In this document: positions 255-24,069 of the stretch, piece by piece
Numbering within the stretch: position 1 is the first letter of the stretch
How the letters are laid out: each line of letters opens with the position of its first letter
Program-made: the position numbers and the translations under genes
IMG/VR virus record: IMGVR_UViG_3300025506_000007
Span: 1-24,238 of that record
Direction: 5' to 3' (one strand)
DNA length: 24,238 bases
DNA from: a virus
Notes under the pieces: model-generated
What the model was told of the DNA's origin: nothing
Seen by the model: the letters and a program-made list of their open reading frames with translations, nothing else
Database searches by the model: none

Positions 255-533
255 TTATCGATGCAATGCTATTGTTAAAGCAAGAATAGAAATTGAAACG
301 GCGATAATTGTAAATCCAATGCCAACTATCCATTTTAAATTTACTATGCCTTCTTTTAAAAGCTCTATATCTTTGCGTATTAATGTAACGTCGCTTTTCG
401 TGGCCACGCTATTGTCAATATAATCACGCTGAATATTAGCAAAACTCGCGTGAACATCTATTATTTCTTCTTTTTCACCTGCTTTTTTTAAGTTTTGCGT
501 GTACTGAAATATGTCATATGTTGTTGCTGTCAT
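255..533 (-). CDS. Small coiled-coil membrane-anchored protein, DUF1640-like
   Basis: 92 residues. A short N-terminal head (YDIFQYTQNLKKAG) is followed by the phrase VATKSDVTLIRKDIELLK, a coiled-coil stretch, and one C-terminal membrane segment (about residues 66-89). This order of head, [LV]ATKxDI phrase, coiled coil and C-terminal helix is what I associate with the DUF1640/CCDC90-like family; its role in phages is not established. The head is more diverged here than in 737-1012 and 1025-1267, which share the architecture. The minus-strand start is preceded by AAGGAAAT. It is immediately followed by the leader peptide gene at 35-253. Confidence 0.65.
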   Translation of the reverse strand: MTATTYDIFQYTQNLKKAGEKEEIIDVHASFANIQRDYIDNSVATKSDVTLIRKDIELLKEGIVNLKWIVGIGFTIIAVSISILALTIALHR

Positions 534-4820: not shown

Positions 4821-4856
4821 ATGCAAGAAACAAAAATTGTTACTGCGGAGTTATAA
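4821..4856 (+). CDS. 11-codon leader ORF ahead of the nuclease gene
   Basis: ATG with an excellent Shine-Dalgarno (AAGGAG at 4808-4813, 7-base spacing) encodes MQETKIVTAEL and stops at 4856, five bases before the nuclease start. The binding site of the nuclease gene (CGGAG) lies inside the last codons of this ORF. This arrangement suggests translational coupling or a regulatory upstream ORF; the peptide itself may have no function. Confidence 0.45.
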   Translation: MQETKIVTAEL

Positions 4857-4860
4857 TAAC

Positions 4861-5409
4861 ATGTTAAGAAAAATAAATCTATTATTGTTTGTTCTATTCT
4901 TTTTCTGCTCTTCCTTCGCTAGTGCCGCTAAATTTTCGTCTGATGCAGAATATCAACTGATTTTCACTCCTGGAGAAGATGATTGTGCAAAACAGATTGT
5001 CCAAGTAATTAATAACGCTAAACACCAGGTTCTTGTTCAAGCTTATAGTTTTACTGATTGGGATATTGCACATGCTTTATTACAAGCAAAAAGACGAGGA
5101 GTGCAAGTGAGCGTTCTTTTAGATAGGAGCCAAAAAGATAAGGAAATTATGCGGTTTTTATTGTTTTATAAAATTGATTGCAGTATTGATTCTGCTAACT
5201 CTATCTCAATAGCGCACAATAAAATTATAATTGTTGATCGCAAAATAGTTGTTGGAGGCAGTTATAATTATAGTAAAAACGCAGCTCATAGAAATGCAGA
5301 AAATATTACGATAATAAAAGATCGTGCTTTTGCAGCGGCTTTTTATGCTAATTGGAAAGCAAGAAAAGAAATGAATAAAACAAGAAAATCACAGAACTGC
5401 GCATTATAA
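4861..5409 (+). CDS. Secreted phospholipase D-family (Nuc-type) nuclease
   Basis: 182 residues from the ATG at 4861. A classical signal peptide (KINLLLFVLFFFCSSFASAA) would send it to the periplasm. The mature part fits the short Nuc-type phosphodiesterases: TPGEDDCAKQIVQVI, a QAYSFTD strand, a RRGVQVSVLLD segment, then one HKD motif (HNKIIIVDRK) followed by GGSYNYS. Such proteins dimerise to bring two HKD motifs together and cut DNA non-specifically. The length is that of the complete family. It stands alone between a terminator-like hairpin and a structured spacer, so it looks like an accessory gene; destroying incoming DNA in the periplasm is one possible role (inference). Strong on family, open on role. 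Confidence 0.85.
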   Translation: MLRKINLLLFVLFFFCSSFASAAKFSSDAEYQLIFTPGEDDCAKQIVQVINNAKHQVLVQAYSFTDWDIAHALLQAKRRGVQVSVLLDRSQKDKEIMRFLLFYKIDCSIDSANSISIAHNKIIIVDRKIVVGGSYNYSKNAAHRNAENITIIKDRAFAAAFYANWKARKEMNKTRKSQNCAL

Positions 5410-8020: not shown

Positions 8021-8326
8021 TTATTTTCCTCCATCTGATTCAGTACATGGCTCAGATGAAGCTGATACTGAAGATAATACCATAGAAGCTACATTCAACG
8101 AAAACCCTACTACTGCCGATGTAATGCCCCAAACCCTTAAATTTACGAGTGGCGCATCTGCTCCGGTTGCAGTAGCGGGAGCATTGACATGTAATGCTTG
8201 ACCAAGCGCACCCATAGAAGTACCGATTGCTACACATATAGAAGAGGCTGTAGCCAAAGCTGTTTTTACACACATTCCTCCACCGCTCACTTCAGAAACT
8301 TCTGAACAAGTTAAATTTTGTAACAT
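8021..8326 (-). CDS. Double-glycine-leader peptide, class IIb-like hydrophobic core
   Basis: 101 residues. The first 16, MLQNLTCSEVSEVSGG, match the bacteriocin leader at L-12, E-8, V-7, V-4, G-2 and G-1. The 85-residue core is alanine-, glycine- and serine-rich with two hydrophobic segments and small-residue spacings (AIGTSMGALGQAL), three cysteines and a polar end. Such cores are typical of pore-forming class II bacteriocins/microcins, whose leaders are cut by C39-peptidase ABC exporters. GGAG precedes the start. No exporter or immunity gene is recognisable nearby; the small membrane peptide at 8584 would be the only immunity-size candidate. The leader is seen; activity is inferred. Confidence 0.7.
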   Translation of the reverse strand: MLQNLTCSEVSEVSGGGMCVKTALATASSICVAIGTSMGALGQALHVNAPATATGADAPLVNLRVWGITSAVVGFSLNVASMVLSSVSASSEPCTESDGGK

Positions 8327-10675: not shown

Positions 10676-12171
10676 AAGCCAGTTTGCTTGATGATCTGCT
10701 TTTGTTTACACAGACATTTTATAAGCTACGTACGGGAAGAGATTTTAAAATAACCTGGCCGATTAGCCGTGAGTCGCATTATCTAGTTATCGGTCGAGCT
10801 CTTGACCGAGTATTCGAAGGTAAATGCACCAATCTATTAATTAATGTTCCACCACGTTATGGCAAGTCATCCTTACTTATTAACTGGGTTGCTTGGTGTA
10901 TGGCCAGATATCCTGACAGCAACTTCTTGTATGTTAGTGTTAGCGCAGAGCTAGCAACTAAGGCAACTGCTGAAATTAGGGAGATAATGACAACCCCATA
11001 TTATCGAAACATGTTTCATGTGGAGCTACGCGGTGATTCTCAAGCTAAAGATAACTTCACTACGACAGCTGGCGGTACGGTTTTAGGTTTAGGTTCAGGC
11101 GCTACAATTGTAGGATCAGGAGCAGGACTTCGCGGCGTAGAGCGCTTTGGCGGAGCAATTGTGCTTGACGATCTAATGAAACCTTCAGAGGCTACTAGTC
11201 AGACTATTAGAGAGGGCATACAGGATTGGTATTATAATACACTTATCAGTAGGAAAAATGGCGGAGTTAAAACTCCTACGGTTTTCCTTGGTCAGCGACT
11301 ACATGAGTATGATCTAGCCGCTCATTTATTGGCAGAGCCAGAATGGGAGAGTGTAGTTTTAAAGGCAATAGATGATTCTGGTAATGCTCTTTGTCCAGCT
11401 TTACATACAATACAAGACTTAAGAAGACTGCAGGAACAACAACCTTATGTATTCAATGCGCAATTTCAACAGTCACCAAGCGGAGAAGGTTCTAGCTTGT
11501 TCAAGGCCGAAAATTTCCCAATATTAGATACCGAACCCAATCTATTGATGACGTTTCTAACTGTCGATACTGCTGAGACGATAAAGCAGATAAACGACGC
11601 TACAGTATTTAGCTTGTGGGGAGTTTACGAGATCATTCATTTTGATAAGCCAACTGGTAGATATGCTTTGCACTGGTTAAACTGCGTGGAGATATTTGTA
11701 GAACCAAAAGATTTACAAGCTGAGTTCATGCAGTTTTATGCTGCTGCCTGTAAGTTTAAACTACCGTCTTTTGCTGCTATAGAAAAAAAGAGCACTGGTG
11801 TAACGTTAGTAAGTGTGTTGAGTACAATACAAGGGTTAAACATTATATCAGTAGATCGCACATCAAAATCAGGGTCAAAGACGGATAGGCATTTATCTAT
11901 GCAGCAATACATTACTCAAAAATTAATTACCTTTCCTTATGGAGCGCAGCATGTGCGAATGTGTATAGATCATATGACCAAGATAAATGCAGCAGGTACG
12001 CAAAGGCGATCGGATATATGTGATAGTTGCTTTGACGCGGTGCGTATGGTGTATCAAGACAAGACGGCTTTGCATTTTATTGCTAATACTAAAGTAAGCC
12101 AAGAACAATCTAAGAGTATTATGCGCAATCAATTGCTGCAAAACACACAACGCGCAGAAAGGTGGGATTAA
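10618..12171 (+). CDS. terL: Terminase large subunit (packaging ATPase and nuclease)
   Basis: 517 residues from the ATG at 10618; an upstream TTG at 10597 is in frame but lies inside the sequence that supplies the binding site (AAAGGA). ATPase domain: Walker A VPPRYGKS at 77-84 and Walker B GAIVLDD at 179-185. Nuclease domain of RNase H fold: TVDTAET (D317), AIEKKS (E389) and CFDAV (D473) are the likely metal-binding acids. It drives DNA into the prohead and cuts headful or site-specific ends. The length is normal. The gene stops two bases inside the convergent leader peptide gene at 12168, an unusually tight join with no visible terminator. Confidence 0.92.
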   Translation: MENENATVDERIIRETAEVKASLLDDLLLFTQTFYKLRTGRDFKITWPISRESHYLVIGRALDRVFEGKCTNLLINVPPRYGKSSLLINWVAWCMARYPDSNFLYVSVSAELATKATAEIREIMTTPYYRNMFHVELRGDSQAKDNFTTTAGGTVLGLGSGATIVGSGAGLRGVERFGGAIVLDDLMKPSEATSQTIREGIQDWYYNTLISRKNGGVKTPTVFLGQRLHEYDLAAHLLAEPEWESVVLKAIDDSGNALCPALHTIQDLRRLQEQQPYVFNAQFQQSPSGEGSSLFKAENFPILDTEPNLLMTFLTVDTAETIKQINDATVFSLWGVYEIIHFDKPTGRYALHWLNCVEIFVEPKDLQAEFMQFYAAACKFKLPSFAAIEKKSTGVTLVSVLSTIQGLNIISVDRTSKSGSKTDRHLSMQQYITQKLITFPYGAQHVRMCIDHMTKINAAGTQRRSDICDSCFDAVRMVYQDKTALHFIANTKVSQEQSKSIMRNQLLQNTQRAERWD

Positions 12172-12407
12172 TTATTAGGCTTCGTTGTATTTTGTGTAAA
12201 CTCTTTATACTTTTCTTTTATAAAATATCCAGTTGTTTTGGCTGTAAGAAAACATGTTAATCCGCCTAAAGATATTCCACCGCCGGAAGCGGCTGGAAAC
12301 ATTTGTTTGCACTTTTCATAAACAACATAATACGAAACCCATTCTATCACGCAGGAGGTGTATCCGCCTGTGACAATGGTTATTTCTTTTTGTGATAGAG
12401 ATTTCAC
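12168..12407 (-). CDS. Double-glycine-leader peptide with Gly/Ala-rich core
   Basis: 79 residues. The leader MKSLSQKEITIVTGG is close to the consensus (L-12, S-11, E-8, I-7, V-4, GG). The 64-residue core has three cysteines, a hydrophobic aromatic stretch (VIEWVSYYVVYEKC), a small-residue run (PAASGGGISLGGLTC) and a lysine-rich end, which suggests a membrane-active class II bacteriocin/microcin-like peptide. It follows the small DUF1640-like gene at 12420 by 12 bases, and its stop overlaps the terL stop in a convergent arrangement. This two-gene minus-strand cassette interrupts the terL-portal junction. No transporter is present, so export would need host machinery. Confidence 0.72.
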   Translation of the reverse strand: MKSLSQKEITIVTGGYTSCVIEWVSYYVVYEKCKQMFPAASGGGISLGGLTCFLTAKTTGYFIKEKYKEFTQNTTKPNN

Positions 12408-15073: not shown

Positions 15074-15316
15074 TTAGCATTGCTGATCAATTTCATCTTT
15101 CCACTGATAAGCGGTAGCGTGCATTCTTATGCAACACTCGTTTCTGCATTCAGCCTCATTTTCTTCATAATGAAATGTGAACACTTCGTGGCCAAGGTAT
15201 ACTGGTGTTTTAATGCCGTTGATCGTAACTGGAGGTGGAGCATGGTTCTTACATACGCAGGTACCATAGACACCTCCGGTGATTAGTTTTGCTTCTTGAG
15301 TGTTAAGTTGTTTCAT
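15074..15316 (-). CDS. Six-cysteine peptide with double-glycine leader
   Basis: 80 residues. Leader MKQLNTQEAKLITGG (L-12, N-11, E-8, I-4, GG). The 65-residue core has CVC, 34 residues containing several prolines and histidines, ECRNECC, 17 residues with YQW, and a C-terminal Cys. ECRNECC closely matches ECRDICC of the peptide at 35-253, and the 17-residue gap to the last Cys is equal, so the two are clearly related; 9354-9539 is more distant. It begins with an ATGA overlap on the coiled-coil gene 15313-15534 and is the last gene of a minus-strand accessory operon. Three disulfides and export are inferred. Confidence 0.75.
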   Translation of the reverse strand: MKQLNTQEAKLITGGVYGTCVCKNHAPPPVTINGIKTPVYLGHEVFTFHYEENEAECRNECCIRMHATAYQWKDEIDQQC

Positions 15317-15536: not shown

Positions 15537-15941
15537 TTAATCTCTCTTGTTTGTTTTATTTAATGCGGTAATGCCTATCAATCTCTTTATAAGTAATATT
15601 TGTTCTTTGGTTTTGTGGATTTCTTTATATACCGATGAAAACATACTAGCCAAATCTTTACATTGGTCCTTAGAAAAGCCGCCTTCCAATCCTTCGTCGT
15701 CTGAAAACTCCATTAATTCCTTGTATATTTCCTCATGTTTTTCTGCTGGTATATACTCTGGTTCTTGCCTGTTGGCTTTTATTGTTTTTAATTTATCAAA
15801 AAACAAATCTAAATTATTGCCCAACACAAGTGAAGCGGAAAAACAACCAACCAACGCTTGTGCTTGATCTAGTTTAAAGCCCGCCTCTTCTACCAATCTA
15901 TCTATTAGAGTTGCGTCTAATGTTTTGTATATGATGTTCAT
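15537..15941 (-). CDS. Protein with two DUF1640-like head motifs
   Basis: 134 residues. Two copies of a head-like motif are visible: AGFKLDQAQALVGCF (about residues 20-34) and GGFSKDQCKDLASMF (about 87-101). The second shares GGFSKDQ with the protein at 737-1012. The region between is acidic. There is no C-terminal membrane segment. It looks like a duplication of the head unit with the coiled coil lost or shortened. It leads the minus-strand cassette that ends with a double-glycine peptide. Function unknown. Confidence 0.6.
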   Translation of the reverse strand: MNIIYKTLDATLIDRLVEEAGFKLDQAQALVGCFSASLVLGNNLDLFFDKLKTIKANRQEPEYIPAEKHEEIYKELMEFSDDEGLEGGFSKDQCKDLASMFSSVYKEIHKTKEQILLIKRLIGITALNKTNKRD

Positions 15942-15955
15942 GTTTTATCCTTTGT

Positions 15956-16237
15956 TTATATCCTGTTTTTTAAGTCTCGATAAAAATTTTCGTGTGTACC
16001 AAGAAACAGTAGCAACCTTTCTTTTGGAAACCATTTGTAAGCTAGTAGCATTTTCAAATGGTGCATTTGGAATTTGTATACATAAATTCCAGCTAAGTTA
16101 CCTTTTTTTATTTGCCCTATTTTTGGATTATTAATAACATCATTGATGGCTATATCAACTATTTCTTTTTGATTATCATGCAGCCGTCTATATGATTTAT
16201 TAAAGGCTGGTTCTTGAGTGATTGTTATGTTTTTCAT
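15956..16237 (-). CDS. RelE/ParE-type toxin
   Basis: 93 residues from the ATG at 16237; an ATG at 16255 would add six residues. The order KSYRRLHDNQKEIVDIAIND, then NPKIGQIKKGNLAGIYVYKF, KMLLAYKW and LLLFLGTHENFYRDLK is the RelE/ParE fold (helical hairpin, then beta sheet with G..L.G..VYKF). Such toxins cleave ribosome-bound mRNA or poison gyrase; the subtype cannot be fixed. Its start lies within the end of the antitoxin gene, the usual antitoxin-first coupling. Together they form an addiction module or superinfection-defence gene pair inside the head operon. Confidence 0.75.
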   Translation of the reverse strand: MKNITITQEPAFNKSYRRLHDNQKEIVDIAINDVINNPKIGQIKKGNLAGIYVYKFQMHHLKMLLAYKWFPKERLLLFLGTHENFYRDLKNRI

Positions 16238-16451
16238 GTTTTTGATCGAATTCAAAAGGAATTGGAGTTTCTGCTAATGCTTCAAAAATGCCTTCTATAA
16301 AATCACCAGGCAAGTCTGGATTGTCAATTGCTGTTCTTCCGATCTTTGCCCAGTATAAAATCTGATTAGGAATAGAGCGAAATTGGGATTCTGCCACTGG
16401 TTTTGTTTCATTGTAAAAATCTTTATCTATTCTTATTGCTATGCTGCTCAT
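16200..16451 (-). CDS. ParD-like antitoxin
   Basis: 83 residues. The N-terminus SSIAIRIDKDFYNETKPVAE is a ribbon-helix-helix type DNA-binding strand and helix, and SQFRSIPNQILYWAKIGRTA plus DNPDLPGDFI is the signature of the ParD-like antitoxin family (PF11903 as I recall it). The C-terminus is polar and histidine-rich and would bind the toxin. It overlaps the toxin gene by 38 bases. Upstream on the minus strand TTGCAT-17-TACACT is a possible promoter, and TTATTGTGTAACAA beside it is an imperfect dyad where the complex could autoregulate. Confidence 0.75.
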   Translation of the reverse strand: MSSIAIRIDKDFYNETKPVAESQFRSIPNQILYWAKIGRTAIDNPDLPGDFIEGIFEALAETPIPFEFDQKHEKHNNHSRTSL

Positions 16452-19037: not shown

Positions 19038-19058
19038 TGTAATTTTTGATTGACTTTA

Positions 19059-19085
19059 AAAGTACACCCTGATACGGTGTACTTT
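19059..19085 (+). terminator. Perfect 10-bp hairpin between coat gene and HNH gene
   Basis: AAAGTACACC (19059-19068) pairs with GGTGTACTTT (19076-19085) around a 7-base loop and ends directly at the HNH start codon. The tail (TTTATGAT) is short for a strong terminator. It may reduce read-through from the coat gene or hide the HNH ribosome-binding region, since the only candidate site (GGTG) is inside the stem. Confidence 0.55.
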
Positions 19086-19808
19086 ATGATAAAAAAAGAA
19101 ACTAAATTAAGATTTGAAAGCAAAATAAACAAGCTTTCTCATGGTGGTTGCTGGGTCTGGACCGGAAATAAGAATGAAAAAGGATACGGTCTAGTTCGCA
19201 TAGATGGCAAAAGATATAAAGCGCACAGGATAGCATACGAGCTTTATATTGGTGATATTCCTTCGGGAATGTTGGTTTGCCATTCTTGCGACAATCCCGA
19301 GTGCTGTAATCCAAAGCATTTGTGGCTTGGTACCCATGCTGACAATCAGCGGGATAAGATCGCTAAAGGCAGGGATCACTTTAGCAAAGGTTATGTGGTT
19401 AGCGACGAGAACAGGGTTAGAATTAGTGAATTACACAAAGGTAATACATATAATTTAGGCCGAGTTCTTAGCGATGAACACAAAGCCAAGCTTAGTGCCA
19501 GTCATATAGGCAAGACGCTTAGTGATGAGCACAAAGCGAAGATTGGAGCATCGCTTATTGGTAGGCCGGTTAGTTCTGAGACAAGAGAAGTGCTCAGAGC
19601 TAAATCAACTGGTAATAAGAATGCTTTAGGCAATCGACATAGTGATGATGCTAAAGCTGCGAGAAGCAAAATGATGACTGGAAACACTCGCGGTAAAGGC
19701 AGCATACGTAGCGCTGAATCTATAGAAAGATATAGGCAGGCGGCTATAAAAAGAGAAGCTGTTCGTAAAGCTAACAAATCTTTAAATGATATTAACAATT
19801 TAAATTGA
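19086..19808 (+). CDS. HNH homing endonuclease with NUMOD3-type repeats
   Basis: 240 residues from the ATG at 19086. The N-terminal HNH domain includes GGCWVWTGNKNEKGYG, KAHRIAYELYIGDIP, then LVCHSCDNPECCNPKHLWLG (zinc-knuckle Cys residues and HNH histidines). It is followed by several NUMOD3-like DNA-binding repeats (LSDEHKAKLSASHIGKT, LSDEHKAKIGASLIGRP and more diverged copies to about residue 230). This is the layout of free-standing phage homing endonucleases, which cut at related loci and spread their own gene. It is inserted between the coat gene and the next virion genes and is almost certainly a parasitic insertion with no virion role. Confidence 0.88.
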   Translation: MIKKETKLRFESKINKLSHGGCWVWTGNKNEKGYGLVRIDGKRYKAHRIAYELYIGDIPSGMLVCHSCDNPECCNPKHLWLGTHADNQRDKIAKGRDHFSKGYVVSDENRVRISELHKGNTYNLGRVLSDEHKAKLSASHIGKTLSDEHKAKIGASLIGRPVSSETREVLRAKSTGNKNALGNRHSDDAKAARSKMMTGNTRGKGSIRSAESIERYRQAAIKREAVRKANKSLNDINNLN

Positions 19809-19818
19809 GGTAATAAAT

Positions 19819-20595
19819 ATGACTTTTTTTACAGGAATTAATACACCAATTCCAGGATCAAGAAATCCCGTTGGTTATATAACAGGTCTTACTGCTGCCT
19901 GGGCTAGCAACACCACTTTAACCTTAGCCGTAGGAGCTTGTTCAGACTCTACAAACGACATTGATATGACTGTAGCAACTGCTATAACAATTAATGCTGC
20001 AGTAAACGGTGCTGCAGGTTTAGATACTGGCTCTTTGGCAGCAAGTACGTTTTATTATGTATATGTAATTGCCGACTCCAGTGGTTATACGCATGCGTTA
20101 CCATCTGCTGTAATTTCAGCTGCTGCACCTACTGCTACTACAGGGCCACTAATGCCATATGGATATAACACTTGGAGAATGGTAGATATCAAAGTAACTG
20201 ATGGTTCCTCGCATTTCTTATTGACTTATACAAAGGGTCAATATAGTTATAGAGAGTTTATCTATGATGCTCCATTAACAACCGGTTCATCATCTCTAAC
20301 AACCTCGTATGTTGCTCTTCCGTTAACTGCTTGTGTAGCCCCTATTGGTACACCAGACGTTAATTTTGTAGCTACGTTTACCCCTAATGCTGCAGGACAC
20401 ATTGCCTATCTACAACCAACTGGTGGTACGGGTAACGAAGCTGAATTAAGTGGGGTAGTTGCAACAGTAGCACAAGTGGCTGATCTAGAATGCACAGCAT
20501 TTGTTGTTAGTGGTGTTCCTAGCATTAGTATAAAAGGAACGGCGGCTACAGACACATTGGTGCTTTTAGTGAAATCATTCACATATTGTGTTTAG
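19819..20595 (+). CDS. Virion-region protein A of a tandem pair
   Basis: 258 residues, rich in Ala, Thr, Ser and Gly with many short beta strands. It begins MTFFTGINTPIPGSRNPVGY and includes GPLMPYGYNTWRMVDIKVTD and REFIYDAPL. The next gene starts with nearly the same residues and keeps these landmarks, so the two are paralogues. The beta-rich composition and place between coat and head-completion genes suggest a decoration, head-fibre or minor surface protein, but I recognise no family. GAGGTAATAAAT precedes the start, exactly as in its copy. Confidence 0.7.
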   Translation: MTFFTGINTPIPGSRNPVGYITGLTAAWASNTTLTLAVGACSDSTNDIDMTVATAITINAAVNGAAGLDTGSLAASTFYYVYVIADSSGYTHALPSAVISAAAPTATTGPLMPYGYNTWRMVDIKVTDGSSHFLLTYTKGQYSYREFIYDAPLTTGSSSLTTSYVALPLTACVAPIGTPDVNFVATFTPNAAGHIAYLQPTGGTGNEAELSGVVATVAQVADLECTAFVVSGVPSISIKGTAATDTLVLLVKSFTYCV

Positions 20596-20609: not shown

Positions 20610-21395
20610 ATGACTTTTTTCACAGGTGTTAATACGCCAATTCCCCTTTCAAGGAATACGGCGCCGTATATAAGCGGATTAATCGCTAGTATAAGCAGTA
20701 CTACGCCAACTACATCGCTAACTCTAAGCGTAGGTTCTTGTTCAGATTCTACGAACAACATTGATATGGTTGTGTCAACACCTATAACAATTAACGCTAC
20801 AACAGAAGGCGTAAATGGTATAGATGCTGCAGCAGCTTTAGCGGCCTCTAGCATTTATTATGTTTATGTAATTGGCTCAAGCGATGGTATTTATTTACCA
20901 CAAGCGATACTGTCTTTATCTCCTACCGGACCAGCATTACCTGAAGGTTACGACAGTTGGCGTATGGTAGATATTAAGGCAACTGGCGTGGCTTCTACAT
21001 TTTTGCTTTCTTATACAAATCCAGTAGCATTAGGTCGGGAGTTTATTTATGACGCTCCAGTTAAAGTGCTAAACGGTGGCGCAGCAAATACTTTTACTGC
21101 TGTTAGTTTAGCAAACGTAGTTGCTCCCATAGGTTCTCCAGACGTGCATTTTATTGCAAGCATTACCCCTGTTGCAGGTACTGGTGCCGGTGATTCTATT
21201 ACTTTAAGACCTACAGGATCGGCTAGTGCCGGTTTTGCAATCTTAAGTGGTAGCGTTGTATCAAAGGCGCAAGTAGCTGATCTAGAATGCCCAGCGTTTA
21301 TTGTAGGGGGCACATATCAAGCGGTAGATTATACACTGACTGCAGCAGGCGACGTGGCCAGTTTGTGGGTAAAAAGCTGGACGTACACAGTATGA
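20610..21395 (+). CDS. Virion-region protein B of a tandem pair
   Basis: 261 residues from the ATG at 20610, chosen by the binding site GAGGTAATAAAT and by alignment to its paralogue; an upstream TTG at 20586 overlaps the previous gene and is not used. Shared landmarks: MTFFTGVNTPIPLSRN, ACSDSTN-like CSDSTNNIDMVV, GYDSWRMVDIKATG, GREFIYDAPV, APIGSPDVHFIA and a SWTYTV end. The duplication includes the ribosome binding site. Function presumably as for the first copy; two copies may allow mixed surface structures. Confidence 0.7.
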   Translation: MTFFTGVNTPIPLSRNTAPYISGLIASISSTTPTTSLTLSVGSCSDSTNNIDMVVSTPITINATTEGVNGIDAAAALAASSIYYVYVIGSSDGIYLPQAILSLSPTGPALPEGYDSWRMVDIKATGVASTFLLSYTNPVALGREFIYDAPVKVLNGGAANTFTAVSLANVVAPIGSPDVHFIASITPVAGTGAGDSITLRPTGSASAGFAILSGSVVSKAQVADLECPAFIVGGTYQAVDYTLTAAGDVASLWVKSWTYTV

Positions 21396-21466: not shown

Positions 21467-22420
21467 ATGGCATATTCCGTAAATGAGTTGATTACGAATG
21501 CGTTTTATCTGAGCAAGGTAAGATCACGTGATTTTCAAACTGTATCAGGTAGCGATGTTACAATCGGGCTAGACCTGTTTAATAAAGTATTGGCTGGTAC
21601 TGCAAGCAATACGCGGATGATACCGTATTATTCAGAATATAGTTTAAATGCGGTTATTGGCCAAGAAAAATATTTTATACCTAATTTAGTTGAGCCTTTT
21701 TCGCTCACGTTTAACATGACGCCGGTCAGGTTTGCTACAACAAAGCTTAGCCGAAGACAATTCCACTCAACGACAAGAATAAACAACATTATTGCGTTGC
21801 CTTTCGATGTAACCTTTGAAAGGGCGTACAATGTAAATATTGGCGCAGTTGCAGTAGTTGTTGCTGGTAGTGGTTATGCGATTGGCGATATTTTAACGCT
21901 TGTTGGCGGTAACAATGATGCAACACTTACGGTTACTGCGCTTAGCGGTACAGCTGTTGCTGCTGTTAATGTTTCAAATCCAGGAACTGGATATAGCAAT
22001 AATACAACTTATGGCGTAACTGGCGGTACAGGTTCTAGTGCAACATTTGCTGTTACGCTAGGAAATGATGGCTGTAACATGTCAGTACAATACTTACCTA
22101 ACGAAACGTATCCCTTTCGCGTCTGGGGAAAGTTTGCGCTTAGTCCTGTTACGGTTGCACAATTACCTATGGATTTAACTACTGTATATGCTCTGTGGTA
22201 CATAGATTACTTAGAACACTGGGTGGCAAAACGCATATGTAATTATTACGGCGTTGCTATAAATCCTGAGGTGCAGGCAATGATTGATAATATCAGTTCT
22301 AATATCAACGATTGCAACGTTATAGACTTGACGTCAGAGAAAATTAATTTGTATTGTAATCGTGGCCAGCCGAACTGGATTACTTTGCAGTTATCGCATG
22401 GTTTTGAGCCGGGGTATTAA
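21467..22420 (+). CDS. Head-tail adaptor, P22 gp4-like, with an inserted beta domain
   Basis: 317 residues, about twice the P22 gp4 length of 166. The N-terminal 120 (VNELITNAFYLSKVRSRDFQ ... ) and C-terminal 115 (LTTVYALWYIDYLEHWVAKR ... NPEVQAMIDNISSNINDCNV) look like the helical gp4-type adaptor that binds under the portal. Residues about 125-199 are a Gly-rich beta insertion (VVAGSGYAIGDILTLVGGNN ... GVTGGTGSSATFAVTL) that recurs in the next protein. The start has AGGTGGGGG. The stop overlaps the next start as TAATG. The gp4 reading rests on position, helical ends and neighbour; the insertion is seen directly. Confidence 0.6.
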   Translation: MAYSVNELITNAFYLSKVRSRDFQTVSGSDVTIGLDLFNKVLAGTASNTRMIPYYSEYSLNAVIGQEKYFIPNLVEPFSLTFNMTPVRFATTKLSRRQFHSTTRINNIIALPFDVTFERAYNVNIGAVAVVVAGSGYAIGDILTLVGGNNDATLTVTALSGTAVAAVNVSNPGTGYSNNTTYGVTGGTGSSATFAVTLGNDGCNMSVQYLPNETYPFRVWGKFALSPVTVAQLPMDLTTVYALWYIDYLEHWVAKRICNYYGVAINPEVQAMIDNISSNINDCNVIDLTSEKINLYCNRGQPNWITLQLSHGFEPGY

Positions 22421-24069
22421 TGGCCACACTTCCACTACAACTTCTATGCAGTTCTAAATTTGGGCGCTTTAGTAAAATATCGTTAGAACAGTGCTGGAAC
22501 ATGTTCCAAATTGATGGTTGGATGGTTCCATACGCAGGTTATATATCTGTAAATGCACAAATAATAACGGGAGTTGGCAGAGGAATATTTTATAGTGCAC
22601 GTTCTAATACTGGTTATATGGTGCTAGGAGAGAATGTGTATAGTATAACATTTCCCAGTGCCATTCCCTGGCAACCAATAGTAACTTACGTTGCTAGTTT
22701 GTCTACATCGTACGGCGATGTGTTTATAGACGAGAACTTGATGGATCAAATAGCATTTTGTGATAAGCAATATATTTATATATATGACTATTCAACCAGT
22801 GCGTTTGCTCGACTTCCATTGGATTTTAGCGCTGGATATGTAACTTTTCAGGACACTTATTTTATAGCTTCATGTAATGGATTACCTGAGTGGAGAATTT
22901 CAGACGATCTTTTGCTTGCTATTAATACAGCGACAGTAGTCAATGGTGGCAGTGGCTATCATGTTGGTGACGTATTAACACTTGTTGGCGGGAAGAATGG
23001 TACTATAACCGTTGCTACACTTAGTGGTTCTGCGGTTGATACCGTAACTGTTCCACCTGGAACAAGCAATATAAGCTCAGGTTTTGATGATAGCGTAACC
23101 TATGCTGTAACTGGAGGTCATGGAACTGCTGCTACTTTTTCTATTACGCTACAGAGCGGCTTTACTCCATCAAGCGAACAAACCGGAAGTTTTGAGACAA
23201 AACCTGATAATGTAATGGCTTGCGTTAGAGTTCCTGGTAAGCCAGGACAGCTTCTTGTGATGGGAAAGACAGTAACAGAGTTATGGAGCGATCTCAAACT
23301 ACAACTATTTCAATACCAAAGAAACAGCGGCTATATCATCGATTTTGGGTGTTTGAATGCTGCTACTATTGCTACTAATGAGGAATTTGTTATTTGGCTT
23401 GGTAGTAATGAAAAATCCGGTCCAGCAATATTGTTATGCGCTGGTGGACCTGCAACGCAGATATCAGACGATGGAATAAATTACCGCTTGGCACAATTAG
23501 TAAATCCTGAAAACTCTTTTGGGTTTATATTTAAACAAGATGGGCAAACATTTTACCAACTTACGTTTGCTGATCCAGCCGATAATGTGACATTTGTATA
23601 TCACTTTAATGCGAAGAAGTTTTATAACTTATGTGATCCATATCAGAATTATCATATTGCAAGGCGAGTAGCTTATTTTAATAATAATTACTATTTTATA
23701 AGCGCAACTGAGCCGATTTTGTATCAACTGTCTAATGACTTTAATACTGCCAATGGACAGGAAATACCGAGAATAATTATAACGCCAACATCAGCGCTTA
23801 CTAGTCGCGCACCTTTTGTTGTAAATAGCATTACTTTTCCTATAGAGCAGGGAGAGAATGAGATTGATGCGCGCGTTGATCTCTCTACATCATCAGACGG
23901 TGGCATTACTTTTGGTAATCCATTTGGTCTTTGGCTTAATAATTCTGGAAAAAGAAGAAATATTTTCAAGTTTTATAATTTAGGCAGATATAACGAAGTA
24001 ATTTTTCAGTTTAGATTTTATGGGTTGGGCCGCTTTGTGCTCAGCGACGGGGAAGCAGATATAGTTTAA
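22420..24069 (+). CDS. Packaged-DNA stabilisation protein, P22 gp10-like, with the same insertion
   Basis: 549 residues; P22 gp10 is 472. It starts PLQLLCSSKFGRFSKISLEQ and continues with beta-propeller-like strands (GVGRGIFYSARSNTGYMVLG, DEEF-type WLGSNEKSGPAILLC) and ends with SSDGGITFGNPFGLWLNNSG and GLGRFVLSDGEADIV, as gp10-family proteins do. Residues about 169-245 carry a Gly-rich insertion (NGGSGYHVGDVLTLVGGKNG ... TGGHGTAATFSITL) closely resembling the one in the gp4-like neighbour, which accounts for the extra length. It closes the portal after packaging and joins gp4 to the tail needle. Overlapping start with gp4 supports joint production. Confidence 0.75.
   Translation: MATLPLQLLCSSKFGRFSKISLEQCWNMFQIDGWMVPYAGYISVNAQIITGVGRGIFYSARSNTGYMVLGENVYSITFPSAIPWQPIVTYVASLSTSYGDVFIDENLMDQIAFCDKQYIYIYDYSTSAFARLPLDFSAGYVTFQDTYFIASCNGLPEWRISDDLLLAINTATVVNGGSGYHVGDVLTLVGGKNGTITVATLSGSAVDTVTVPPGTSNISSGFDDSVTYAVTGGHGTAATFSITLQSGFTPSSEQTGSFETKPDNVMACVRVPGKPGQLLVMGKTVTELWSDLKLQLFQYQRNSGYIIDFGCLNAATIATNEEFVIWLGSNEKSGPAILLCAGGPATQISDDGINYRLAQLVNPENSFGFIFKQDGQTFYQLTFADPADNVTFVYHFNAKKFYNLCDPYQNYHIARRVAYFNNNYYFISATEPILYQLSNDFNTANGQEIPRIIITPTSALTSRAPFVVNSITFPIEQGENEIDARVDLSTSSDGGITFGNPFGLWLNNSGKRRNIFKFYNLGRYNEVIFQFRFYGLGRFVLSDGEADIV

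What the first reader, a model, noticed from the sequence alone, without database searches (positions are those of the whole stretch)
21839..23154. Same glycine-rich domain inserted in two adjacent head-completion proteins
A ~75-residue module with GSGYxxGDxLTLVGG ... VTGGxGxxATFxxTL occurs within the gp4-like protein (about 21839-22063) and within the gp10-like protein (about 22924-23154), making both longer than P22 counterparts. Adjacent rings in one tail carrying the same insert suggest domain spread and perhaps an outward-facing ring of beta domains.
Basis: partly seen in the sequence, partly recalled or inferred. Interest (0 to 1): 0.5.

Follow-up and report, generated by a model that had tools for sequence, protein, structure and literature searches.

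The report
Shared surface domain in phage tail
A small beta-barrel domain, distantly related to the outermost domain of the phage T4 tail sheath, has been inserted separately into two neighbouring ring proteins of a short-tailed phage, and the same thing happened in at least one other phage lineage.

Summary
A ~79-residue glycine-rich module lies in the gp4-like adaptor (21833-22069) and in the adjacent gp10-like nozzle (22921-23154), 56% identical, far above shuffled controls. Both are insertions: of 33 distinct complete adaptor+nozzle pairs sampled, 27 lack the module, 5 have it in the nozzle only, and 1 (the window's species) in both. The adaptor copy's nearest relatives are nozzle copies of its own clade (moderate tree support).

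The module is widespread in phage virion proteins. A PDB profile search, a profile-profile test with shuffled controls, and an AlphaFold2 model make it a distant relative of T4 tail-sheath gp18 domain I, the outermost sheath domain; it does not reach the Pfam threshold for that domain.

The adaptor is not P22-type: it has a T7/SU10-like fibre-dock domain, and the module sits in a hairpin of it. The nozzle copy sits, by blade counting, in propeller blade 3. Outward display is likely but not shown.

A distant lineage (L116/L149) also carries the module in both rings, at other sites. Surface display of extra beta domains is known in phages; this domain's identity and its repeated pairing are the new part.

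The parts
21467..22420 (+). gp4-like head-to-tail adaptor gene (317 aa): helix bundle, fibre-dock beta domain, C-terminal arm
   Evidence: AF2 model with alignment A6, mean pLDDT 87.5, pTM 0.75; VIA matches to cyanophage A4, GP4, Moo19, SU10, N4 and P22 adaptors
21833..22069 (+). module, copy 1 (adaptor residues 123-201), inserted in a beta hairpin of the fibre dock; six strands predicted at residues 125-198
   Evidence: Absent from 36 of 37 aligned adaptors; structure; model residues 126-200 align with T4 gp18 residues 99-188, Z 6.3
21806..21826 (+). fibre-dock strand directly upstream of the insert (residues 114-120)
   Evidence: DSSP of model
22070..22090 (+). fibre-dock strand directly downstream of the insert (residues 202-208)
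   Evidence: DSSP of model
22420..24069 (+). gp10-like nozzle / head-closure gene (549 aa); its first base is the last base of the adaptor's stop codon
   Evidence: phrog_578 head closure Hc3, E 4.5e-37; profile hits Pam1 7eeq E 9.5e-14 and Pan3 9vyg E 5.3e-12
22921..23154 (+). module, copy 2 (nozzle residues 168-245), inserted in the hairpin WxLS|xNxGxxW, probably propeller blade 3
   Evidence: Present in 4 of 32 aligned nozzles, all of the window's clade; also in L068
12706..14856 (+). P22-type portal protein gene, the ring above the adaptor (context)
   Evidence: PF16510 P22_portal E 1.4e-64

Best explanation
The module is a mobile surface beta domain of tailed-phage virions, a distant relative of domain I of the T4 tail sheath protein gp18. 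An ancestor of the window's clade acquired it in the nozzle protein, in a hairpin of (by blade counting) propeller blade 3. Later, in the window's lineage, a copy most likely from a nozzle gene of the same clade entered the next-door adaptor gene, in a hairpin of the fibre-dock domain. In the virion this would place up to 12 (adaptor) plus 6 (nozzle) copies on the outside of the tail, around the zone where fibres attach. Its most likely job is accessory: an extra outer surface that braces or widens the collar around the fibre bases and/or gives weak contact with the host surface, as proposed for Ig-like domains on other phage tails. Shown: two related inserts, their distribution among the relatives sampled, a fold prediction, distant relatedness to gp18 domain I. 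Inferred: direction of copying, copy number, outward placement, function.
For: Presence/absence: 33 distinct complete pairs, 27 with neither, 5 nozzle only, 1 both; clean insertion against relatives 59-73% identical in their best segment. Origin: best scores of the adaptor module among 82 other copies are three clade nozzle modules (200, 193, 189; next 162); the tree groups it with the 5 clade nozzle modules at 93/85, not starred. Identity: a profile of 38 modules against all PDB chains has T4-type sheath proteins (near relatives of one another) as its first six hits, E 0.0019-0.048, next hit E 3.4; hhalign with 8 gp18 domain I sequences prob 90.5, E 1.3e-6, score 38.6, against a maximum of 20.7 in 200 column-shuffled controls; model residues 126-200 against gp18 99-188, Z 6.3, rmsd 3.0 over 73 residues, Foldseek prob 0.99 at E 0.04. 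T4 gp18 domain I is residues 98-188, a six-stranded beta barrel, outermost (PMC8570332, passages). The adaptor core aligns over 189-202 residues with cyanophage A4, GP4, Moo19, SU10 and N4 adaptors but over 111-112 with P22 gp4. Fibre docks hold the fibres (PMC6702177 passages; PMC9509320 passages and a section). Recurrence: L116/L149.
Against: The gp18 relationship is distant. The window proteins do not hit Pfam PF22639 at E 1; of 10 other proteins scanned, three hit it and all below the cut-off, the best with 20.5 bits against 27; the hhalign match spans only 43 columns, the first half of the domain; Z 6.3 lies in the range where other small barrels also appear (eIF2-gamma domain III, Z 4.7-5.1). 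In the tree the adaptor copy is sister to the clade's nozzle copies, not nested in them (86/45), so direction is not shown; support rests on 83 columns and a bootstrap that had not settled. Two of the five clade nozzle modules (L008, L013) are not among its twelve best scores. Module sampling was capped at 600 pattern matches, so a nearer donor may be missing. The model lacks oligomer context and inter-domain error values, and 21 of its 45 alignment rows are module fragments of other proteins. No host-binding or fibre-binding evidence exists.
Confidence: 0.6

Rival explanations
1. The two inserts were acquired independently from the large pool of such modules in other phages, and their likeness only reflects that pool.
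For: DNA identity of the two copies is only 70%. In the tree the adaptor copy is not nested among the nozzle copies. In the L116 lineage the adaptor and nozzle modules differ in arrangement.
Against: The adaptor module scores best with three nozzle modules of its own clade and groups with the clade's nozzle modules at 93/85.
Confidence: 0.3
2. The modules are specific docking sites: adaptor and nozzle copies form matching surfaces for the same partner (a fibre base or a decoration protein) that recognises this fold.
For: Both copies sit in the two rings that in T7-type tails hold the fibre between adaptor dock and nozzle dock (PMC6702177 passages). The adaptor copy is in the fibre-dock domain. 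The pairing recurs in a distant lineage. The same species' 15.6-kb contig has genes downstream that look fibre-like by eye (not searched).
Against: The close relatives have the nozzle copy only (5 distinct pairs, two of them near-identical), so a double site is not needed. No partner gene is identified.
Confidence: 0.2
3. The module is a carbohydrate- or host-surface-binding domain that adds weak adhesion.
For: Analogy with Ig-like domains on T5 and YSD1 tails, for which weak carbohydrate contact has been proposed but not verified (PMC8718954, passages).
Against: No binding data; no carbohydrate-binding family hit in Pfam.
Confidence: 0.3
4. Chance resemblance of glycine/valine/threonine-rich low-complexity sequence.
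For: The composition is biased, and tblastn with default filtering finds nothing in 50,697 phage records.
Against: Score 189 against a maximum of 85 in 2000 composition-preserving shuffles; conserved positions across proteins; a confident six-stranded fold.
Confidence: 0.02

Closest known systems
T4 tail sheath protein gp18, domain I (PF22639 Gp18_dom_I)
   Same: Six-stranded beta domain with matching boundaries (model 126-200, gp18 99-188), shared GSxYxVGDxLTV-like start, outermost in gp18
   Different: Found here in an adaptor and a nozzle of a short-tailed phage; below the Pfam threshold; 18% identity in the structural alignment
Adaptors with fibre-dock domain (T7 gp11, SU10 gp11, cyanophage A4, N4, Moo19)
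   Same: Helix bundle plus beta domain between helices 2 and 3; 189-202 residues aligned with A4, SU10, N4 and Moo19, 154-167 with T7 gp11 at Z 8.8-9.1
   Different: Extra module within the dock; next to a P22-type portal and a P22/Pam1-type nozzle
P22 gp4 / Sf6 gp7 adaptors
   Same: Helix bundle; P22 gp4 111-112 residues at Z 11.8-12.5, Sf6 gp7 105-134 residues at Z 9.7-12.3
   Different: No fibre dock in P22/Sf6 (PMC9509320 section, PMC6702177 passages); no module
Nozzle proteins with inserted beta domains (SU10 Ig-like nozzle domains; crAss001 muzzle IG1/IG2)
   Same: Domains inserted between propeller blades 2/3 or in blade 3
   Different: There the inserts are called Ig-like; here a gp18-domain-I-like module
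Ig-like domains on phage virion proteins
   Same: Surface beta domains added to tail proteins of several phages (PMC8718954 passages); promiscuity among virion proteins is recalled (Fraser 2006, seen only as a reference-list entry)
   Different: No Ig-family Pfam hit; different family

Membership tests
T4 gp18 domain I family (PF22639) | reaches the Pfam gathering score (27 bits) | tested here: not met
   Window proteins: no hit at E 1; best among the 10 proteins is 20.5 bits. Hence called a distant relative, not a member
T4 gp18 domain I family (PF22639) | sequence-profile relatedness above chance | tested here: met
   PDB hmmsearch E 0.0019; hhalign 38.6 against a maximum of 20.7 in 200 shuffled controls
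T4 gp18 domain I family (PF22639) | six-stranded beta barrel over the whole domain | tested here: met
   Six strands predicted; aligned over gp18 99-188, Z 6.3; middling Z, so fold similarity rather than proof
T4 gp18 domain I family (PF22639) | outermost exposure in the assembled ring | not testable with these tools
   No multimer prediction was available
T7/SU10-type fibre-dock adaptor | helix bundle plus beta fibre dock between helices 2 and 3 | tested here: met
T7/SU10-type fibre-dock adaptor | C-terminal embracing helix or loop around the portal | tested here: inconclusive
   Short helix 304-309 in a stretch of pLDDT 55-61
T7/SU10-type fibre-dock adaptor | dodecamer that binds fibres | not testable with these tools
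   -
P22 gp4 / Sf6 gp7 adaptor | no fibre-dock domain | tested here: not met
   The model has a beta domain between helices 2 and 3; only 111-112 residues align with P22 gp4
Hc3 / gp10-type nozzle | family profile and solved homologue | tested here: met
   phrog_578 E 4.5e-37; 7eeq E 9.5e-14
Hc3 / gp10-type nozzle | beta-propeller with inserts away from the channel | not tested
   Blade number deduced by counting on the alignment only; no fold prediction of the nozzle
Ig-like domains (Big_1, Big_2, FN3, I-set) | Pfam Ig-clan hit | tested here: not met
   No Pfam family at E 1 for P0001, P0002 or the modules alone

The most novel reading that the evidence does not exclude
A T4-sheath-domain-I-like module is a mobile docking element. 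Phages repeatedly place it on both the adaptor fibre dock and the nozzle, copying it from one ring gene to its neighbour, to build a composite 12+6-copy collar recognised by fibres or decoration proteins of this fold class. The contractile-sheath surface and the short-tail collar would then share one exchangeable surface part.
Probability: 0.2. Interest if true: 0.65.

Novelty: new variant of a known kind. Interest (0 to 1): 0.45.

Why it matters
Phages decorate virions with extra beta domains, best known as Ig-like domains. Here a different domain, without a Pfam or NCBIfam hit in the window proteins, is traced to the outermost domain of the T4 sheath, is found in adaptors, nozzles, a tail sheath and baseplate proteins, and is caught at a stage where relatives lacking the adaptor copy still exist. 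That makes insertion sites, direction of copying and function directly testable, and warns annotators that many 'virion structural' hits may come from this module alone (8 of the 10 PHROG hits of the window adaptor up to E 1 fall on it).

Tried and rejected
tblastn of each module against the phage collection gave no match; low-complexity filtering probably removed the query, so this was not taken as absence. Single-sequence AlphaFold2 of the adaptor failed (pLDDT 31) and used one of the two jobs, so the nozzle could not be predicted. phmmer of the window proteins and hmmsearch with the adaptor core profile A2 found no convincing PDB relative; the narrow module profile A1 found nothing meaningful; phmmer of L117 found none. 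In the first combined alignment (A5) MAFFT misplaced fragment ends; fragments were trimmed and A6 used; in the trial three to five residues of the relatives near the insert remained misplaced, and A6 itself was printed only as a summary. Considered and rejected: chance similarity; recent tandem duplication (70% DNA identity); the module as part of the ancestral adaptor fold; P22-type adaptor. Rows dropped before counts: module copies of the window's own species in other contigs, redundant nozzle copies (L010, L011, L012, L069) and matches under 51 profile positions; near-identical rows and rows under 60 aa (56 of 83 kept); incomplete ORFs and identical pairs (47 loci to 33 distinct pairs). PHROG scans covered 28 of the 31 protein clusters; the window adaptor cluster was scanned, and L110 and L127 were not scanned.

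Literature: no paper describing this module or its gp18 relation in adaptors or nozzles was noticed in the ranked listings of the ten searches. Only aimed at the gp18 relation, listings are cut, and the library holds open-licence papers only, so this is no claim that none exists. Passages were seen of PMC8570332, PMC10457771, PMC8718954, PMC11654681, PMC6702177, PMC9509320, PMC10575957, PMC10172136 and PMC12886913, and two whole sections (10 and 12) of PMC9509320; no paper was read in full.

A correction to my own notebook: entry 1 says 13 of 37 adaptors have the other insert at site 158; the listing shows 11.

Full report
The thing itself. The window is a 24,238-base virus record. Its adaptor gene (21467-22420, 317 aa) is followed without a gap by a nozzle gene (22420-24069, 549 aa). 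Each holds one copy of a glycine-rich module that starts GSGYxxGDxLTLVGG and ends TGGxGxxATFxxTL. The copies are 56% identical. The alignment score of 189 compares with a maximum of 85 in 2000 shuffles, and a broad profile finds no third copy in the six frames. At DNA level they are 70% identical, so the duplication, if it was one, is not recent.

Both are insertions. I gathered relatives of the adaptor (60 loci) and of the nozzle (8 loci). In the alignments, 1 of 37 distinct adaptors has the module. Eleven of 37 have a different, longer insert at a second site, and the other 25 show no internal insert of 12 or more residues, one having an N-terminal extension. Four of 32 distinct nozzles have the module, all in the window's clade. 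L068, found later, adds a fifth nozzle of the clade with the module, and its adaptor lacks it. Restricting the loci to those with both genes complete and removing identical pairs leaves 33: 27 with neither, 5 with the nozzle copy only (L008, L009, L012, L013, L068 types, L009 and L012 being near-identical), 1 with both, namely the window's species. That species is represented by five further contigs with an identical adaptor protein; one of them, L063, differs from the window at 2 of 2838 bases over this region.

Where the adaptor copy came from. Against 82 other module copies, its three best scores are nozzle modules of its own clade (L068 200, L009 193, the window's own nozzle 189), the next being 162; the other two clade nozzle modules (L008, L013) are not among its twelve best. 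In a tree of 56 modules it groups with the five clade nozzle modules at 93/85, below the program's mark for trust, as their sister and not nested among them (86/45). Copying from a nozzle gene of this clade, or its ancestor, is therefore the best reading, but the direction is not shown.

The module is widespread. A scan with an alignment of the window adaptor module and four clade nozzle modules (A1) gave 600 pattern matches (limit) and 69 confirmed loci. Module-bearing ORFs in all loci then held fall into 31 clusters of proteins. PHROG hits of 28 cluster representatives include head closure Hc3, tail sheath (L097, phrog_23 E 4.3e-119), head-tail adaptor Ad1 (L087), baseplate wedge (L136, phrog_438 E 2.8e-103), minor tail, tail fibre and generic virion proteins; two representatives (L130, L133) hit nothing. 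Of the 10 PHROG hits of the window adaptor up to E 1, 8 fall on the module.

What the module is. No Pfam or NCBIfam family covers it in the window proteins. A profile of 38 modules searched against all PDB sequences gives T4-type tail sheath proteins, near relatives of one another, as its first six hits (E 0.0019 to 0.048), aligned to about residues 101-175; the next hit has E 3.4. An alignment of eight gp18 domain I sequences matches the module profile by hhalign with probability 90.5 and score 38.6 over 43 columns; 200 column-shuffled controls reach at most 20.7, and the reversed profile 8.5. The narrower profile A1 gives probability 82.4. AlphaFold2 of the adaptor with a 45-row alignment, 21 rows of it module fragments of other proteins, has mean pLDDT 87.5 and pTM 0.75, with six strands in the module. 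Model residues 126-200 superpose on T4 gp18 residues 99-188 (Z 6.3, rmsd 3.0, 73 residues), which are nearly the limits of domain I: residues 98-188, six-stranded beta barrel and a helix, outermost part of the sheath (PMC8570332, passages). Against this: Z 6.3 is middling, eIF2-gamma domain III scores 4.7 to 5.1 in the same list, and the Pfam domain itself (PF22639) is reached only below threshold, in three of ten other proteins scanned (best 20.5 of 27 bits). I call it a distant relative, not a member.

Where the inserts sit. The adaptor core aligns with the adaptors of cyanophage A4 (202 residues), GP4 (197), SU10 (189-196), N4 and Moo19 (193 each), T7 (154-167), but with only 111-112 residues of P22 gp4 and 105-134 of Sf6 gp7; Z-scores of P22 and of the fibre-dock adaptors overlap, so the distinction rests on aligned length and on the beta domain in the model. 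T7 and SU10 adaptors have a beta fibre-dock domain that P22 and Sf6 lack (PMC6702177 passages; PMC9509320 section). The window's adaptor therefore has a fibre dock, and the module sits between two of its strands, residues 114-120 and 202-208. The nozzle is homologous to the Pam1 and Pan3 proteins. Its insert lies in the hairpin WxLS|xNxGxxW. Counting blades on the alignment makes this blade 3 (inference; no nozzle model). [quoted passage not shown] in crAss001 one Ig-like domain lies between blades 2 and 3 and another in blade 3 (passages). Insertion of beta domains in this protein family is thus known in kind.

A second case. In locus L116 and in L149, whose adaptor is identical to it, an adaptor-like protein carries the module with its two halves in the opposite order, at what looks by eye like a different fibre-dock loop. 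It hits phrog_12985 but no Pfam family at E 1; L131, which also hits phrog_12985, reaches Pfam SU10_adaptor (34.2 of 27 bits) and phrog_637 Ad3. The next gene, a nozzle (phrog_578 E 4.4e-52), carries three weaker overlapping repeats just before the part that aligns as blade 3. Of 14 loci of this family in which both genes can be seen (some cut at an end, not reduced to distinct pairs), 2 have the module in both (L116, L149), 1 in the adaptor only (L151), 2 in the nozzle only (weak, 21.6 and 22.8 bits) and 9 in neither (L150 is the same contig as L116 and is not counted). Adaptors 49-62% identical to it lack the module (L152-L156). So a nested adaptor insertion beside a module-bearing nozzle arose again.

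Mechanism. Most likely the module is an outer accessory domain displayed on two stacked rings around the fibre bases, up to 12 plus 6 copies if stoichiometry follows T7 and SU10. Steps shown: insertion, distribution among the relatives sampled, predicted fold class. Steps inferred: exposure, copy number, function (bracing the collar, weak host contact, or a docking surface). On Ig-like domains of tail tube proteins, the review PMC8718954 (passages) reports that removal lowers lambda activity about 100-fold while tails still form, that removal in other systems does not affect activity, and that SPP1 does not need its FN3 domain; its T5 sentence calls the domain indispensable for tube formation. 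A modest role is therefore a reasonable prior, not a rule.

Verdict. New variant of a known kind.

Noticed in passing
window 8021-8326 (-), 12168-12407 (-), 15074-15316 (-): Three small minus-strand ORFs each begin with a leader-like stretch ending in GG (EVSGGG, IVTGG, LITGG), resembling double-glycine bacteriocin leaders (resemblance recalled). No Pfam or NCBIfam hit at E 0.1.
   Followed up: partly
window 15956-16451 (-): ParE-like toxin (PF15781 E 4e-31) and ParD-like antitoxin (PF11903 E 1.6e-9) pair inside the structural region.
   Followed up: partly
window 19050-19808 (+): HNH/NUMOD3 homing-endonuclease-like gene directly after the gene in the major capsid position.
   Followed up: partly
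window 19819-20595 and 20610-21395 (+): Two tandem paralogous genes of unknown function, 134 of 267 columns identical, between capsid and adaptor genes.
   Followed up: partly
window 255-533, 737-1012, 1025-1357, 15537-15941 (-): Several small minus-strand ORFs that look alike by eye; two of the four were scanned and match CCDC90-like below threshold.
   Followed up: no
window 4837-5409 (+): Phospholipase D-like protein (PF13091 E 1.3e-24), with a hydrophobic N-terminus by eye.
   Followed up: no
adaptor relatives L024, L031, L034, L038, L039, L040, L043, L048, L054, L058, L060: A different insert of 104-113 aa (247 in L040) lies at a second adaptor site, just before helix 3, in 11 of 37 adaptors: the fibre dock region accepts several kinds of insert.
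   Followed up: partly
L131:3604-4572: A SU10-adaptor-like protein carries, by eye, yet another inserted repeat; the same locus has a module-bearing ORF.
   Followed up: no
L097:752-3178, L105: Tail sheath protein (phrog_23, scanned in L097) with this module inside it, in line with the T4 sheath domain I relation.
   Followed up: partly
L079 and relatives (31-ORF cluster): A large group of proteins whose best PHROG is named amidase (phrog_5107, E 8.7e-32) and second Hc3 (E 5e-14) carries the module, by the alignment, before blade 3, a different site from the window's.
   Followed up: partly
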